Source: an uncultured Erysipelotrichaceae bacterium
Lineage (GTDB): Bacteria; Bacillota_I; Bacilli_A; RFN20; CAG-826
Direction of reading: 5' to 3'
Assembly (NCBI GenBank): GCA_902800905.1
Contig: CADCGC010000001.1
Coordinates: 62,001-126,000 of the forward strand
Length of the DNA stretch: 64,000 nucleotides
The notes below the pieces were generated by a model. The model did no database searches. It saw only the letters and a list, made by a program, of their open reading frames with translations, and was not told where the DNA came from. Shown piece after piece: positions 13,539 through 20,993 of this stretch (position 1 is the first letter of the stretch; each line of letters opens with the position of its first letter). A program made the position numbers and the translations under genes.

Positions 13539-13748
13539 TTATTTATTTTTATATTTCTTAATAATGAAATCTACTATTTCTTGTTTAACATTTTCTTTTC
13601 TTATTAGAACACCGGCAATTGTTTTTTCTTTACCAGCAATGACACCTTTAACATAAATAAACTTCTTTGTATTCATGAACCTTGTTTTATCATAGTTAAA
13701 CACATAACTGAATTCGCTTCCATCCACTAGTAGAGACGCCTCTTCAAT
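13539..13748 (-). pseudogene. Downstream part of the membrane protein gene, cut off by an in-frame TGA
   Basis: After the TGA at 13749-13751 the same reading frame stays open for 69 codons to a TAA at 13539. The peptide begins IEEASLLVDGSEFSYVFNYD and ends DFIIKKYKNK. It is charged and looks like an ordinary soluble tail domain. There is no ATG near its start and no ribosome site; the first possible start is a GTG at 13725-13727. The simplest reading is that it is the original C-terminus of the upstream gene, no longer translated or reached only by readthrough. Confidence 0.65.
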
Positions 13749-14420
13749 TCAATCGTTAAAGACTCTAAGAGATGTAGGGAGTCTATTATTTACTATCCTT
13801 TTATATAGTTTAGATGGAACGAAATAGAAATAAACATACGCTACAATAAGTGTTACTAAAGAGACAAATCCAAGAGCAACATAGAATGTAATCAAATCAA
13901 GCGGTAAAACCACAAAGAATATAACTAAATATAAAATAGCCAAGATACCTATAGTAATTAATAACTGTGGCCAAATTAAAAACATTGCGAAGTTAAATAT
14001 CTCACCCTTAGTAAACTCATGTTTTTCATTAACGTGGATATATAAAGGCACTTCAGCGTGCATATCTCCATAAATTGGATCGCTTCCAAACCTATCGTAA
14101 ATGTTTTGTATTTGTTCACTATCGCCTTTAACTCTAACCACGACTGATGGTTGGTAACCTTTATTTCTATTTTTATAATAATAAATAAAAACAGTAATTA
14201 AGTAGATAACAAGATAAGGAACGAACGCAATAACAAGTGTTGCAAAGAAATATAAGAATTGATAATTCGGAGTATATTCGCTTGCTCCACTACGAGCCTG
14301 AGCCGCAGCATCAGAAATTAAGATAATGGAGCAAACGATAATAGCAAACAAAAAGAGCATGCATATTACAAACATGATTAAATTTTTTGTGTTTGAAAAA
14401 TAGCCGCTCTTTTGTTTCAT
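13749..14420 (-). CDS. Multi-pass membrane protein of unknown function, truncated by TGA
   Basis: This 223-residue product has about four hydrophobic segments (near residues 15-35, 54-77, 145-167 and 171-196). A soluble stretch with SVVVRVKGDSEQIQNIYDRFGSDPIYGD lies between the second and third. It ends SLRVFND at a TGA. The frame continues for 69 codons beyond it, and Trp (TGG, one base away) would fit the junction. It lies between the 14451 lipoprotein gene and pth. No clear ribosome site precedes the ATG. No family is recognised. Confidence 0.6.
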   Translation of the reverse strand: MKQKSGYFSNTKNLIMFVICMLFLFAIIVCSIILISDAAAQARSGASEYTPNYQFLYFFATLVIAFVPYLVIYLITVFIYYYKNRNKGYQPSVVVRVKGDSEQIQNIYDRFGSDPIYGDMHAEVPLYIHVNEKHEFTKGEIFNFAMFLIWPQLLITIGILAILYLVIFFVVLPLDLITFYVALGFVSLVTLIVAYVYFYFVPSKLYKRIVNNRLPTSLRVFND

Positions 14421-14450
14421 TTAATTAAGGATTAATAAATATTAATCAAA

Positions 14451-15758
14451 TTATCCTTGTACTGGCATTAATTGAGAAGCAATCAATAAAGCATCAACAT
14501 CATATGCTGCAATACCTGCTGCATCTAATGGTGCATAACTAACTTGATCGTTATATTTGAAATCAAGTCTAACTCCGCCTTGGATTGTTGCGGATTCTTT
14601 AATTGCGACATCAGCTTTTACTTCCGCATATTCTAATGCCATGCCGTTCTTGGAACCTGTTGTGCTTCCAACAACGATAGCAGCACCTGCTCTACATCTG
14701 TCAAACATTTCGGTTGGGTTAGTTTCTTCTGAAACTTCTCCGGTTGATGGTACAGCCATTCTTCTAGCGTCATCTGCTACTGGTTGAGACATATCATTGA
14801 TCATCTTAACAACATCAAGCTCAACGGATAATCCCATACGGTTAACTTCTCCATCAGAGCCTTTCCATTGTTTGAAGAATGGTAAGTTATTACCAAGGAA
14901 GCTTAAAATTGCACTGCCAAATGCTGGAGCATATCCTTTAGCAGTTGAGAATCCAGTGCTAACAAAGTAACCGAGGACATCGACTGGTAAATTCTTGAGT
15001 TCTTCAGGAGCGCTTTCTGATGAAGCGACTAACGCAAGAACTTGTGTAAGATTCAAATAAAGTTTTCCACTTCCAATTAATTCATCAAATGTTGGAATTG
15101 CTGGTGCACCTGTAGGATCTTCATCAGGATCTCTGAGTGTAAGAGTAGATACTTGACTCATTGATCCGATAAATTGATCATAAACTTCTTTTAAAACGCC
15201 TTTGATGCTTGCATCACTAACGTCTAAGTAGAGATAAGCAACATCACCGGTTCTTCTTCCGTCTCCTGTTTCAGGAACAACTTGGTAAATGGCAGAGAAT
15301 TTCAAACCAGAATAATTATAATTTGAATAAACTGGTTTGCCTTCTTCATCATATGATGTTGGAACGTTGTTAACAGAAATTGTTAAATTCTTAACATCAA
15401 TCTTTGCAGCAGAGTATTTTCTTTCTCCGACTGGCAAAAGAAGTGAAACGCCAACGTTTGCGTTAAGATTAGCAGAAGCCTTAACTTTTCCTTCTGAATC
15501 GACAGGAATATCTTTTGCGGAAAGATTTACATTTAAGTCAATTTGATAAGCATCTTGATTAAATGTGTTAGCAAGGGCTTGTGAAAACGCATCGAGGCCA
15601 GCTTCATAATCAGAACGTTCGCCTTCTGGGGCTTCTTCAGCCTTAATTTCTTCTCCTCCACTTGGTAAATCTGCTCTAACGTTGTATTGAGCAGGTTGTT
15701 GATTACATGCTGCTAAAGCAAGAATCATTGGGAGGACTAGTAATTTAGATTTTTTCAT
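14451..15758 (-). CDS. Secreted lipoprotein, unknown function
   Basis: This 435-residue protein begins MKKSKLLVLPMILALAACNQQ, a signal peptide with lipobox LAAC (Cys18). The mature part starts with a low-complexity linker and then has long beta-rich stretches with alternating hydrophobic residues (for example YQIDLNVNLSAKD and NLNANVGVSLLLPV). This suggests a large beta-sheet fold for binding lipid or another ligand. No catalytic motif is visible. An AGAGG ribosome site precedes the ATG. It is divergent from the DUF368 gene and upstream of the TGA-split membrane gene. Confidence 0.75.
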   Translation of the reverse strand: MKKSKLLVLPMILALAACNQQPAQYNVRADLPSGGEEIKAEEAPEGERSDYEAGLDAFSQALANTFNQDAYQIDLNVNLSAKDIPVDSEGKVKASANLNANVGVSLLLPVGERKYSAAKIDVKNLTISVNNVPTSYDEEGKPVYSNYNYSGLKFSAIYQVVPETGDGRRTGDVAYLYLDVSDASIKGVLKEVYDQFIGSMSQVSTLTLRDPDEDPTGAPAIPTFDELIGSGKLYLNLTQVLALVASSESAPEELKNLPVDVLGYFVSTGFSTAKGYAPAFGSAILSFLGNNLPFFKQWKGSDGEVNRMGLSVELDVVKMINDMSQPVADDARRMAVPSTGEVSEETNPTEMFDRCRAGAAIVVGSTTGSKNGMALEYAEVKADVAIKESATIQGGVRLDFKYNDQVSYAPLDAAGIAAYDVDALLIASQLMPVQG

Positions 15759-16840: not shown

Positions 16841-18970
16841 TTATATCTTCTCAACTCTAATAATTGCGGAGTTGTTTTCTATTGATTCAACAATAAATGA
16901 CCAGCCCAAATCAAGTCCACTATCAAGGGTGTAATCACTTCCGCCAAAATATTCTTTTCTAGGGAATTGTTTGCCAAATGTTTGTAAGTCGAACGAGTCA
17001 TCAGATTTAAATAATGATTCTGAATTAAATAAATTACTTTGACTTCTTTCAAAAATTGAAGTGGCGGTTTTATCATTTCTAATTAACGAAAGAAGATTGA
17101 AATATGAATAATTTACATTCTTTTTAGCAAGATATGAGACGTGTGCCTCAAGAGCACTATTATCTATATATGTATTTGAAAAAATCGTAGTTAGATTTTT
17201 GTATCCACATTTTGCGTTAGTGGTAAGTTCTTCAGAGAAATTGAAATAATTATCAATTGTATATGATAGTCTTGCATCTACATGCCAAAGTCTAATTCCG
17301 ATATCATTAACCCCTTTTGGATACGCTGACTTAGAAACAACATATTGGTGGCTTGTATCAAATTTGTTAAGACCAGTAGGTGTGTATAATTCCAACAATA
17401 AATATTCATCAAATGGGGAATTATATTCATTCCAGTTTGGTGTTAATAAAATTAGTTCACCTGTTTCTTGGAAAGAATTCAATTTAATTCTACAAGAATT
17501 AGTTGGGATAATTGGATCAACCCAGCCAAACGCCATCATGGAGAAAGGATCATGACCACCAACATTATAATCTTGCATAGAAAAACCACCAGATGGAAGA
17601 TAACCATGTTTACTATAGTCGTAGTAATCTTGTAATCCAAAAACGTGTCCCATCTCGTGAATATATGTATGAGAATCAAGGTTGCAATATGAAGTGTTTC
17701 CTTTATGGAAACTAGAGCCGGTTCTTTCGTTTGCTTTTAATTCTCCATACATAAAATCATAACTAGCCCAGAAGAATGATTTTGCAGTTGGAGACTCAAT
17801 ATTAGGAGAGTTTTTTTCGATATAAAAGCAATAAGCCCATAAGTTTTTATTCTTTGAATATTCTTCGCTTACTCCGTAAGAATTCCAGTTAGGAGCTGCG
17901 TAAATCACCATTACGCCATCTAAATAACCATCCCCATCACTGTCGTAGTTACTTCTACTATCTTCTAAATGAGTTGAAAAATACCAATTAGTCGCATTAT
18001 TTACTAGCGTTTGGGTTTGTGGAGCACGATCGCTGCTATCACTTCCTATATCAGCGGTCGAAATGTCTGGTTCATACCATTCGCTAACTTTCCCACTTAA
18101 ATTGAGTTTTTCTTTACTCTCTGCTTTATAGAAAGAGGAAACACTATGCCATCCAGTTTGAGATTCGCTTCCAAAATAGGTGGTTTCAATATCCTTTCTA
18201 ATGTTTTCTTTAGCAGAATTCTTTTTAAAATATGTAGCAGAATCATTAAACCAAAGAGGAATAACTAGCAAGTTAACATCACCAGAAGATGGACAATTTT
18301 TCTTGTCTAAATCTTTATAGGTTTGCAATATTTCAACTTCTTCAGCGGCTTTTGTAACATTGAAATTCATTGAACTTTCTACATATTCTGTCGCATTTTT
18401 TAACGCTTTGATTGTGAGAGTAAAAGCCTTCTCTTCTTCTTCGTAAAAATAGAAACAATCTTTATCAATTTTCTTAATAATTGTAGTATCCGAACTTGAT
18501 TCAATAACTAAAGGTACTGTGAATTCACTAGGATTAACATTAACATTAATTAGCATCTCTTCCATTGTCTTAATATCGTTTTTATCACAAGTAAGATTAA
18601 TGCTTGATGCGTATTGAACAGAATCAAAAACATCAAATGTAATCAAATTAGATTTAACAGAGCCATATATTACGTAAAGGCTATATTCACCAGCTTCAGA
18701 GAATGATTCCTTTTCAGAATAATGTTTGTCTTCTTTTTCAATAATAACTCTAACGCTTGAATAACTAAATTCTTTAAACACATCGTCTTTATATTTGGCC
18801 TGTATTATTAATTCGTTTGTATTACGATAAATATCTCCAACGACATAACCATTATGATTGTCTTGAATAGTTAACTCTTCAGGAATTGAAAAAAAGTCTT
18901 CGAAACTAATAGAACATCCACTAAGAGCAAGAGACATCAATATAGGAAAAACGAGGCTAACTTTTTTCAT
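16841..18970 (-). CDS. M6-type zinc metalloprotease lipoprotein
   Basis: The likely start is the ATG at 18968-18970, giving about 709 residues. It begins MKKVSLVFPILMSLALSGC with lipobox ALSGC. An upstream ATG at 19006 would put a non-signal stretch in front. After two Ig-like segments, the peptidase part contains SNYDSDGDGYLDGVMVIY and the zinc motif HEMGHVFGLQDYYDY (near residue 437), both typical of M6 (immune-inhibitor-A-like) proteases. The C-terminal third is beta-rich. It is predicted to be surface-anchored and to degrade host or dietary protein. It has no ribosome site; TACAAT lies 7 nt upstream. Confidence 0.85.
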   Translation of the reverse strand: MKKVSLVFPILMSLALSGCSISFEDFFSIPEELTIQDNHNGYVVGDIYRNTNELIIQAKYKDDVFKEFSYSSVRVIIEKEDKHYSEKESFSEAGEYSLYVIYGSVKSNLITFDVFDSVQYASSINLTCDKNDIKTMEEMLINVNVNPSEFTVPLVIESSSDTTIIKKIDKDCFYFYEEEEKAFTLTIKALKNATEYVESSMNFNVTKAAEEVEILQTYKDLDKKNCPSSGDVNLLVIPLWFNDSATYFKKNSAKENIRKDIETTYFGSESQTGWHSVSSFYKAESKEKLNLSGKVSEWYEPDISTADIGSDSSDRAPQTQTLVNNATNWYFSTHLEDSRSNYDSDGDGYLDGVMVIYAAPNWNSYGVSEEYSKNKNLWAYCFYIEKNSPNIESPTAKSFFWASYDFMYGELKANERTGSSFHKGNTSYCNLDSHTYIHEMGHVFGLQDYYDYSKHGYLPSGGFSMQDYNVGGHDPFSMMAFGWVDPIIPTNSCRIKLNSFQETGELILLTPNWNEYNSPFDEYLLLELYTPTGLNKFDTSHQYVVSKSAYPKGVNDIGIRLWHVDARLSYTIDNYFNFSEELTTNAKCGYKNLTTIFSNTYIDNSALEAHVSYLAKKNVNYSYFNLLSLIRNDKTATSIFERSQSNLFNSESLFKSDDSFDLQTFGKQFPRKEYFGGSDYTLDSGLDLGWSFIVESIENNSAIIRVEKI

Positions 18971-18977
18971 GTGATAT

Positions 18978-18983
18978 ATTGTA
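18978..18983 (-). promoter_or_regulatory. -10 box of the M6 protease gene, likely leaderless
   Basis: TACAAT lies 7 nt before the preferred ATG and no Shine-Dalgarno sequence intervenes. It supports starting at 18970 rather than 19006, because the box lies within the alternative longer frame. No good -35 is seen. Confidence 0.45.
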
Positions 18984-19010
18984 ATACAATAAGAAAAATA
19001 TTTCATCTAT

Positions 19011-19054: not shown

Positions 19055-20977
19055 TTAGTATCCGTATGAGTTATTAAATGAAACCCAATTTGTTAAGTCT
19101 GTTTGAGACTTTGTGTAATAAGAGCTTTTGCTACATCCATTTCCAGCAGAATAGAACATAGTCATTCCGTATGATTCTCCAGCTCCTTTACCAGTTGCGT
19201 TGTATTTAACTAATTTGTTAAATGAATCGTCAACAGCGTTTAGTTCATTTAATAATGAGGAGAAACCGCTATTTTTCTTTGCTTTATTTATAAAGTCTTT
19301 AGCATCAAATGTTCCATAGTTATAAGCTCCATAATATGAATGATATTTTCCATCACTTTGAAGTGTTAAACCATATTGGCTGATGATGTATTGAGTTGAA
19401 CAGTTGTAATAATCAGCATATTCTTGAATGTCTGATTGCGTGAAAATCTCATCTGCATAGGATTTAACATTTTGAACCATGAAATCTCTAAAGGATGATT
19501 TTCCGCCTAAAGAAGTAACAGCGTTTTTCATTTTTGTCGCTAACGCTTCCCAATTTGTCTTATATTCATCAGCATAACTCAAATCGTAATATGCTAAGGT
19601 TTGATCACTATCTCCCCATTTGTTTTGCTTATACATTGCATCAGTATCAGCGATGAATCCATCACAAATAGCTTGTAAGATTGTTTCGGTTGATTTCTTA
19701 GCGTATAAATCATCAACCCATGTATCGTAATCCCATCCTTCACCTGCTTCGCTTTCTTCAGAAGCAACCATGTAGTTGAAATATTTGCTATTTGTAATTG
19801 CGATATCTTGAACGCCCATTAAGCAGGCATCATATCCGATGAATTCAAGCTTTTCACCTTCGCTTAAAGTGTTTGATAACGCACTTTGAATTTCAGAATT
19901 AAGTAATGGGTTGCTGTTTTTCTTTTCGTCATAGCAAACACCTTTCATTGCTCCACCATGGTTCCAAAGAATAACACCAGTCTTTTCAGCAGGATAGGAT
20001 TCTAATCCCCACTTTAAGAACGATTGGAATGTAGAGGTTTCACCCATTCCAGCGTAAGAAAGTTCAGCGTCTTTAACAAGTCTCTTGTTAGAAACGTGCC
20101 ATCTTCCTAATTTAGAAGTACTAATTCCATACTTGGAATTCCATGCTGCTGCTCCACCAGTTTCAACGATGATGTTTACATCATTTGGTTGTCCAGCAAC
20201 ACTGAGAATTTCAGTAATATCAGCAGTCGCTAAGCTTGCATCATTAATATGAGTTTTACCATTTTCATCCGTGCCACTTTCAAGATCAGCGCCACATAAA
20301 TAAATCATAACTGTCCATGCTGCTTTAGTAACGACTTGTTTTTCAGAAATGGTAACAGTGCAGGAAGCAGTTTTGTTTCCATCAATGGTTTTAACAGTAA
20401 TCTTAGCGCTACCAGCACTAACAGCTTCAATTGAACCATTATTAACAGTAGCAACTGAAGTGTCGCTACTGGACCAAGTAACATTTTTGTTTGTTGCGTT
20501 AGATGGTTTAATGCTTTCTGTTAACGTTAATTTATCTCCGACATATAAAGATGCTGAAGTTTTATTTAATGAAACGGATGTAACTGAAATTGATGAGTTT
20601 TTAACTGTAACAGTACAAGAGGCAGTGATATTAGATTTGCTATTGCTTTTAGCAGTAATCTTAGTGGTTCCATCTCTAAGTGCTTCAATTTTTCCATCTT
20701 GAGTAACAGAAGCAACTGCACTATTTGAAGATGACCAAGTTAAACTTTTATCAGTTGCGTTAGATGGTTTAACTGTAGCGTTTAATTGTAATGTATTTCC
20801 AATAGTTAACTCTTTGCTGGTAACATCTAAAACAATAGCTGTGACAGCAACATCATGAACCACGATTTGTGGATCGTCATCAACTGGATTGTTGTTTCCA
20901 TTTTGATTTGTTGCGTTTGATACACATCCAGAAAGAGTGAGTAATGCAATAATTGTGAATAGCAATCCTTTTTTCAT
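19055..20977 (-). CDS. C11 (clostripain-family) cysteine protease lipoprotein with two Ig-like domains
   Basis: The start is the ATG at 20975-20977 (640 residues), 8 nt after a GAGG site; the GTG at 20986 is not needed. MKKGLLFTIIALLTLSGC gives a lipobox (LSGC). Two bacterial Ig-like (BIG2) domains follow (about residues 45-210), each with a PSNAT.K..TWSSS..AV core. From residue 220 comes a C11 peptidase: WTVMIYLCGADLESG, the histidine region ILWNHGGAMKGVCYDE, and the catalytic cysteine in IGYDACLMGVQDIA. VASEESEAGEGWDYD follows. C11 proteases usually cut after basic residues. It is paralogous to the C-terminus of the giant protein at 25077-29864. Confidence 0.9.
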   Translation of the reverse strand: MKKGLLFTIIALLTLSGCVSNATNQNGNNNPVDDDPQIVVHDVAVTAIVLDVTSKELTIGNTLQLNATVKPSNATDKSLTWSSSNSAVASVTQDGKIEALRDGTTKITAKSNSKSNITASCTVTVKNSSISVTSVSLNKTSASLYVGDKLTLTESIKPSNATNKNVTWSSSDTSVATVNNGSIEAVSAGSAKITVKTIDGNKTASCTVTISEKQVVTKAAWTVMIYLCGADLESGTDENGKTHINDASLATADITEILSVAGQPNDVNIIVETGGAAAWNSKYGISTSKLGRWHVSNKRLVKDAELSYAGMGETSTFQSFLKWGLESYPAEKTGVILWNHGGAMKGVCYDEKKNSNPLLNSEIQSALSNTLSEGEKLEFIGYDACLMGVQDIAITNSKYFNYMVASEESEAGEGWDYDTWVDDLYAKKSTETILQAICDGFIADTDAMYKQNKWGDSDQTLAYYDLSYADEYKTNWEALATKMKNAVTSLGGKSSFRDFMVQNVKSYADEIFTQSDIQEYADYYNCSTQYIISQYGLTLQSDGKYHSYYGAYNYGTFDAKDFINKAKKNSGFSSLLNELNAVDDSFNKLVKYNATGKGAGESYGMTMFYSAGNGCSKSSYYTKSQTDLTNWVSFNNSYGY

Positions 20978-20993
20978 ATCATTCACCTCTTTT

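What the first reader, a model, noticed from the sequence alone, without database searches (positions are those of the whole stretch)
13539..14420. Membrane protein gene split by a single in-frame TGA where Trp would fit
The 223-residue product ends FND-TGA, and the same frame continues for 69 codons (IEEASLLVDG...) to a TAA with no ATG or ribosome site of its own. One base change (TGG) would restore one protein of about 293 residues. It could be a nonsense mutation, UGA readthrough, or local recoding.
Basis: partly seen in the sequence, partly recalled or inferred. Interest (0 to 1): 0.62.

Follow-up and report, generated by a model that had tools for sequence, protein, structure and literature searches.

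The report
Membrane protein gene with nonsense mutation
A bacterial membrane-protein gene of unknown function carries one stop codon that all its intact relatives lack; the organism treats that codon as a normal stop, so this is most likely an ordinary broken (or polymorphic) gene rather than recoding.

Summary
The tail is homologous to the C-terminal domain of relatives. A syntenic homologue in the same genus (291 aa, 32% identity) runs straight through, as do 11 other strong homologues; none ends there. The gene is therefore interrupted. The Trp/recoding reading fails. The site holds K, R, Y, H, T and other residues in 21 homologous ORFs, never Trp. TGA terminates 27 of 240 long ORFs in 464 kb, Mfd and TopA among them. 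RF2 is present (split over two contig ends) and keeps its TGA-dependent programmed frameshift motif. The only tRNA-Trp has a CCA anticodon on a five-pair stem. None of the 50 tRNAs carries a UCA anticodon, no tRNA-Sec was found, and SelB's C-terminal domain was not detected. The TGA context is not leaky (TGAA) and no unusual RNA structure follows it. No other such interruption was found in the 464 kb examined. Best explanation: a recent nonsense substitution, or a strain variant or consensus error in a draft assembly. The expected product is a 223-aa truncated four-helix membrane protein, with at most a few per cent basal readthrough. Ordinary.

The parts
13749..14420 (-). 5' part of the interrupted gene: 223 codons, predicted membrane part with four long helices (11-43, 53-87, 138-171, 176-211) plus the first strand of the C-terminal domain
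   Evidence: ORF list and translation; homologue L004 32% identical over the full length; hydropathy and AlphaFold model, pLDDT 73.5
13746..13748 (-). in-frame TGA (context GAT TGA ATT)
   Evidence: sequence; homologues have sense codons here
13539..13745 (-). 3' part: 69 codons plus TAA, C-terminal strand-rich domain with a last helix
   Evidence: homology of the tail alone to L004, E 6e-9; family alignment; model strands 224-274 and helix 280-291
13539..13727 (-). 62-codon ORF with a GTG start inside the tail (possible but weak re-initiation site)
   Evidence: GAGG 11 nt upstream
14451..15758 (-). upstream neighbour, predicted lipoprotein; same order in the homologous locus L004
12946..13497 (-). 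downstream neighbour, peptidyl-tRNA hydrolase by sequence (GLGNPGKKYEHTRHN); same order in L004
   Evidence: gene name from own knowledge of the motif

Best explanation
The gene encodes a fast-evolving membrane protein of about 290 residues (four predicted transmembrane helices and a small strand-rich C-terminal domain). In this genome a single substitution made a sense codon, ancestrally one for a variable and mostly polar residue, into TGA. RF2 terminates there, giving a 223-residue product that keeps the membrane helices but loses nearly all of the C-terminal domain. The tail still looks intact because the mutation is recent, or because it is only a strain variant captured in the consensus of a draft assembly. 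Shown: the interruption, the full-length homologues, and standard use of TGA in this genome. Inferred: that termination is efficient here, that the mutation is recent, and that function is lost or reduced.
For: Syntenic same-genus homologue without a stop. Strong homologues across the family are all uninterrupted in the aligned region. Residues at the site in 21 homologous ORFs are Y, R, K, H, T, C and G, never W, with codons such as CGA, AGA and AAA. TGA ends 27 of 240 ORFs of 250 aa or more, with short extensions behind it. RF1 and RF2 are present, and prfB keeps CTTTGAC at its programmed frameshift (motif as in PMC12421855). Only a CCA tRNA-Trp among 50 tRNAs. The window TGA was the only credible in-frame interruption in 464 kb. 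In-frame stops in bacterial genes are widespread and mostly short-lived, near the scale of population polymorphism (PMC7918605).
Against: No close strain was available to show an intact allele, so recency and loss of function are not demonstrated. The tail keeps a coding-like codon score (0.127, against 0.042 for the head), which continued translation would also produce. tRNA-Trp has a G.U wobble as the top pair of its anticodon stem, which might raise UGA misreading slightly.
Confidence: 0.78

Rival explanations
1. The TGA is an assembly or consensus error, or a minority strain allele, and the population gene is intact.
For: Draft assembly of 64 contigs with 4.23% contamination; it is a single substitution with otherwise perfect frame conservation; nothing comparable elsewhere in 464 kb.
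Against: No reads to test; single-base errors in deep consensus are uncommon (own knowledge).
Confidence: 0.11
2. Functional readthrough: near-cognate tRNA-Trp (or another tRNA) decodes the UGA often enough to make a useful amount of the 293-aa protein as well as the truncated form.
For: The tail stays open and homologous; UGA is leaky in B. subtilis (6% readthrough in a prfB+ strain, cited in PMC7918605); the tRNA-Trp anticodon stem has a terminal G.U pair.
Against: TGAA rather than the weak TGAC context (TGAC as weak in PMC12421855); no structure beyond shuffles downstream (z = +0.5 to +0.7); the stop is not conserved in any relative; the anticodon stem still counts as five pairs, not the four-pair form of PMC13092985.
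Confidence: 0.06
3. The truncated 223-aa protein, or two separate products through re-initiation at GTG 13727, is the functional state in this lineage.
For: The membrane part is complete in the truncated product; there is a GTG start with a weak GAGG.
Against: The stop cuts the C-terminal domain after its first strand; every homologue found keeps the domain fused; the ribosome site is weak and off optimal spacing.
Confidence: 0.05
4. Genome-wide or local reassignment of UGA to an amino acid (Trp, or Sec).
For: Only that the frame continues after the TGA.
Against: RF2 present with its TGA frameshift; TGA terminates conserved genes; 839 TGG codons in 240 long ORFs with one credible in-frame TGA in 464 kb; no UCA tRNA; tRNA-Sec model hits are ordinary tRNAs, the best being tRNA-Ser; SelB C-terminal domain not detected (a weak test); no W at the site.
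Confidence: 0.005

Closest known systems
In-frame nonsense substitutions / young pseudogenes in bacterial genes (Belinky et al. 2021, PMC7918605)
   Same: Single stop in an otherwise intact, homologous frame in one genome; standard code; relatives have sense codons at the site.
   Different: Only one genome was available, so persistence and dN/dS could not be measured.
UGA to Trp reassignment (Mycoplasmatales and others; genetic code table 4)
   Same: Low-GC bacterium with a TGA inside a reading frame.
   Different: RF2 kept, no UCA tRNA-Trp, TGA used as terminator, no Trp conservation at the site.
[quoted passage not shown]
   Same: Only a CCA tRNA-Trp is present; its top stem pair is a G.U wobble.
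   Different: The stem still has five pairs and the genome shows no systematic in-frame TGA.
prfB programmed frameshift
   Same: TGA inside a frame that continues; this motif is present elsewhere in the same genome.
   Different: The finding has no CTTTGAC slippery motif and continues in the same frame, not +1.

Membership tests
Pseudogene / nonsense allele | Homologues extend uninterrupted through the site | tested here: met
Pseudogene / nonsense allele | The stop codon is a genuine terminator in this genome | tested here: met
   27 of 240 long ORFs end in TGA, Mfd and TopA among them; RF2 with TGA frameshift motif
Pseudogene / nonsense allele | Relaxed selection or an intact allele in other strains | not testable with these tools
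   one genome per species held; nearest homologue is only 32% identical
UGA to Trp code (table 4) | tRNA-Trp with UCA anticodon | tested here: not met
   50 tRNAs, only CCA for Trp; genome 94% complete
UGA to Trp code (table 4) | Loss of RF2 or of its UGA reading | tested here: not met
   RF2 C-terminal part at the start of contig C6 and N-terminal part at the end of C10 with CTTTGAC
UGA to Trp code (table 4) | In-frame TGA at conserved Trp positions in many genes | tested here: not met
   one credible in-frame TGA in 464 kb, and not at a Trp position
Selenoprotein UGA | SelB, tRNA-Sec, Sec/Cys at the site | tested here: not met
   no SelB wing 3 (this model found only E. coli among 14 controls, so a weak test); tRNA-Sec model hits are ordinary tRNAs; only one distant homologue of 21 has Cys at the site
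Programmed stop readthrough | Leaky stop context or stimulatory RNA structure | tested here: not met
   TGAA context; folding z-scores +0.5 to +0.7
Programmed stop readthrough | Stop conserved in relatives | tested here: not met
4-bp anticodon-stem tRNA-Trp(CCA) | Anticodon stem of four pairs | tested here: not met
   GCGGU/ACCGU, five pairs including a G.U at the top

The most novel reading that the evidence does not exclude
The UGA is read through at a useful rate by tRNA-Trp(CCA), helped by its weak top anticodon-stem pair, so that one gene makes a 223-aa membrane form and a 293-aa form with the C-terminal domain.
Probability: 0.04. Interest if true: 0.4.

Novelty: already known. Interest (0 to 1): 0.06.

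Why it matters
It matters little beyond annotation: it shows that this genome uses the standard code and that the gene should be annotated as interrupted. If readthrough were real it would be a case of dual products from one bacterial gene, but nothing here points that way.

Tried and rejected
Code change: rejected on RF2, the prfB frameshift, tRNAs and TGA terminators. Selenocysteine: rejected; the tRNA-Sec model's only hit over its cut-off is a tRNA-Ser. A second candidate interruption, L075:6350-7010 (TGA), turned out to be a separate small lipoprotein gene with its own ATG. A GTDB contig scan for close relatives found none. Pfam and NCBIfam gave no convincing family (the window protein reaches no cut-off). 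Foldseek against PDB gave nothing with E below 0.001; several weak matches are to PH or PTB folds, so a PH-like C-terminal domain is only a lead.

Full report
Observation. The reported feature is on the minus strand. An ATG at 14420 opens a 223-codon ORF ending RVFND-TGA (TGA at 13748-13746), and the same frame continues for 69 codons to a TAA at 13541-13539. In a first-order random model of the window 69 codons stay open in 1.15% of trials. The tail alone matches a homologue's C-terminus with E = 6e-9, so it is coding-derived.

Homologues. In the same genus G005 carries the gene in the same order (lipoprotein, this gene, peptidyl-tRNA hydrolase), 291 aa, 32% identical and uninterrupted. Profile searches of the family and order found more relatives in other genera. 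The strong ones run through the site without a stop; the TAG counted for G099 lies at the end of its ORF. In the alignment of 21 homologous ORFs, the residue at the TGA is Tyr, Arg, Lys, His, Thr, Cys or Gly, never Trp, and the codons include CGA, AGA and AAA. The position is variable. The gene is missing or undetectable in the other 17 same-genus genomes with the sequence queries, with one marginal partial match in G010. It is therefore dispensable or very fast-evolving.

Genetic code. RF1 is at C10. RF2 is split between the end of contig C10 and the start of C6; its C-terminal part has the SPF and GGQ motifs. Its N-terminal part holds the classical in-frame TGA after 25 codons in CTTTGAC, with the frame continuing at +1, as described for prfB (PMC12421855). 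That TGA works only where RF2 reads UGA as stop. In 464 kb, TGA ends 27 of 240 ORFs of 250 aa or more, with short extensions after it; Mfd in the window and TopA are among them. Trp is written TGG 839 times in those ORFs. Of the 50 tRNA genes found, the Trp tRNA has anticodon CCA. The two that ARAGORN did not resolve read as UCU (Arg) and UAG (Leu) from the covariance alignment. tRNA-Sec model hits are ordinary tRNAs, and the SelB C-terminal domain was not found, though that model found only one of 14 controls. The tRNA-Trp anticodon stem is GCGGU/ACCGU, five pairs with a G.U at the top, unlike the four-pair form that promotes UGA decoding (PMC13092985).

Readthrough signals. The stop context is GAT TGA ATT, not the weak TGAC. 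RNA downstream of the TGA folds no better than shuffles (z = +0.5 to +0.7). In 464 kb the only other candidate interruption with a coding-like tail was a false one. Basal UGA leakiness of a few per cent is plausible: 6% in a prfB+ B. subtilis strain is cited in PMC7918605.

Protein. No family model is convincing; the window protein reaches no curated cut-off. The model (mean pLDDT 73.5) shows four long helices and a C-terminal domain of several strands with a final helix; the TGA falls at the start of the domain's second strand. Weak structural matches to PH and PTB folds are only a lead. Termination at the TGA would therefore leave the membrane part and remove nearly all of the domain.

Conclusion. 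A nonsense substitution in an accessory membrane-protein gene under the standard code, real or in the consensus of a draft assembly. Such in-frame stops are common and mostly short-lived in bacteria (PMC7918605). Not tested: reads, conspecific strains, translation.

Noticed in passing
L117:1410-1488 (end of contig C10) and L002:1-705 (start of contig C6): prfB is broken by a contig boundary; its programmed frameshift site CTTTGAC is present, but the SD-like GGG lies 6 nt upstream of it, farther than the usual 3.
   Followed up: partly
L031:91-164: tRNA-Trp(CCA) has a G.U wobble as the top pair of its anticodon stem.
   Followed up: partly
window 16841-19006 and 19055-20986: Two large predicted secreted or lipoprotein genes side by side that look like an M6-type metalloprotease and a clostripain-like protein with Ig-like repeats (by sequence reading only).
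   Followed up: no
window 14421-14460: No clear Shine-Dalgarno sequence before the ATG of the interrupted gene (upstream ...ATTAATCCTTAATTAA-ATG).
   Followed up: no
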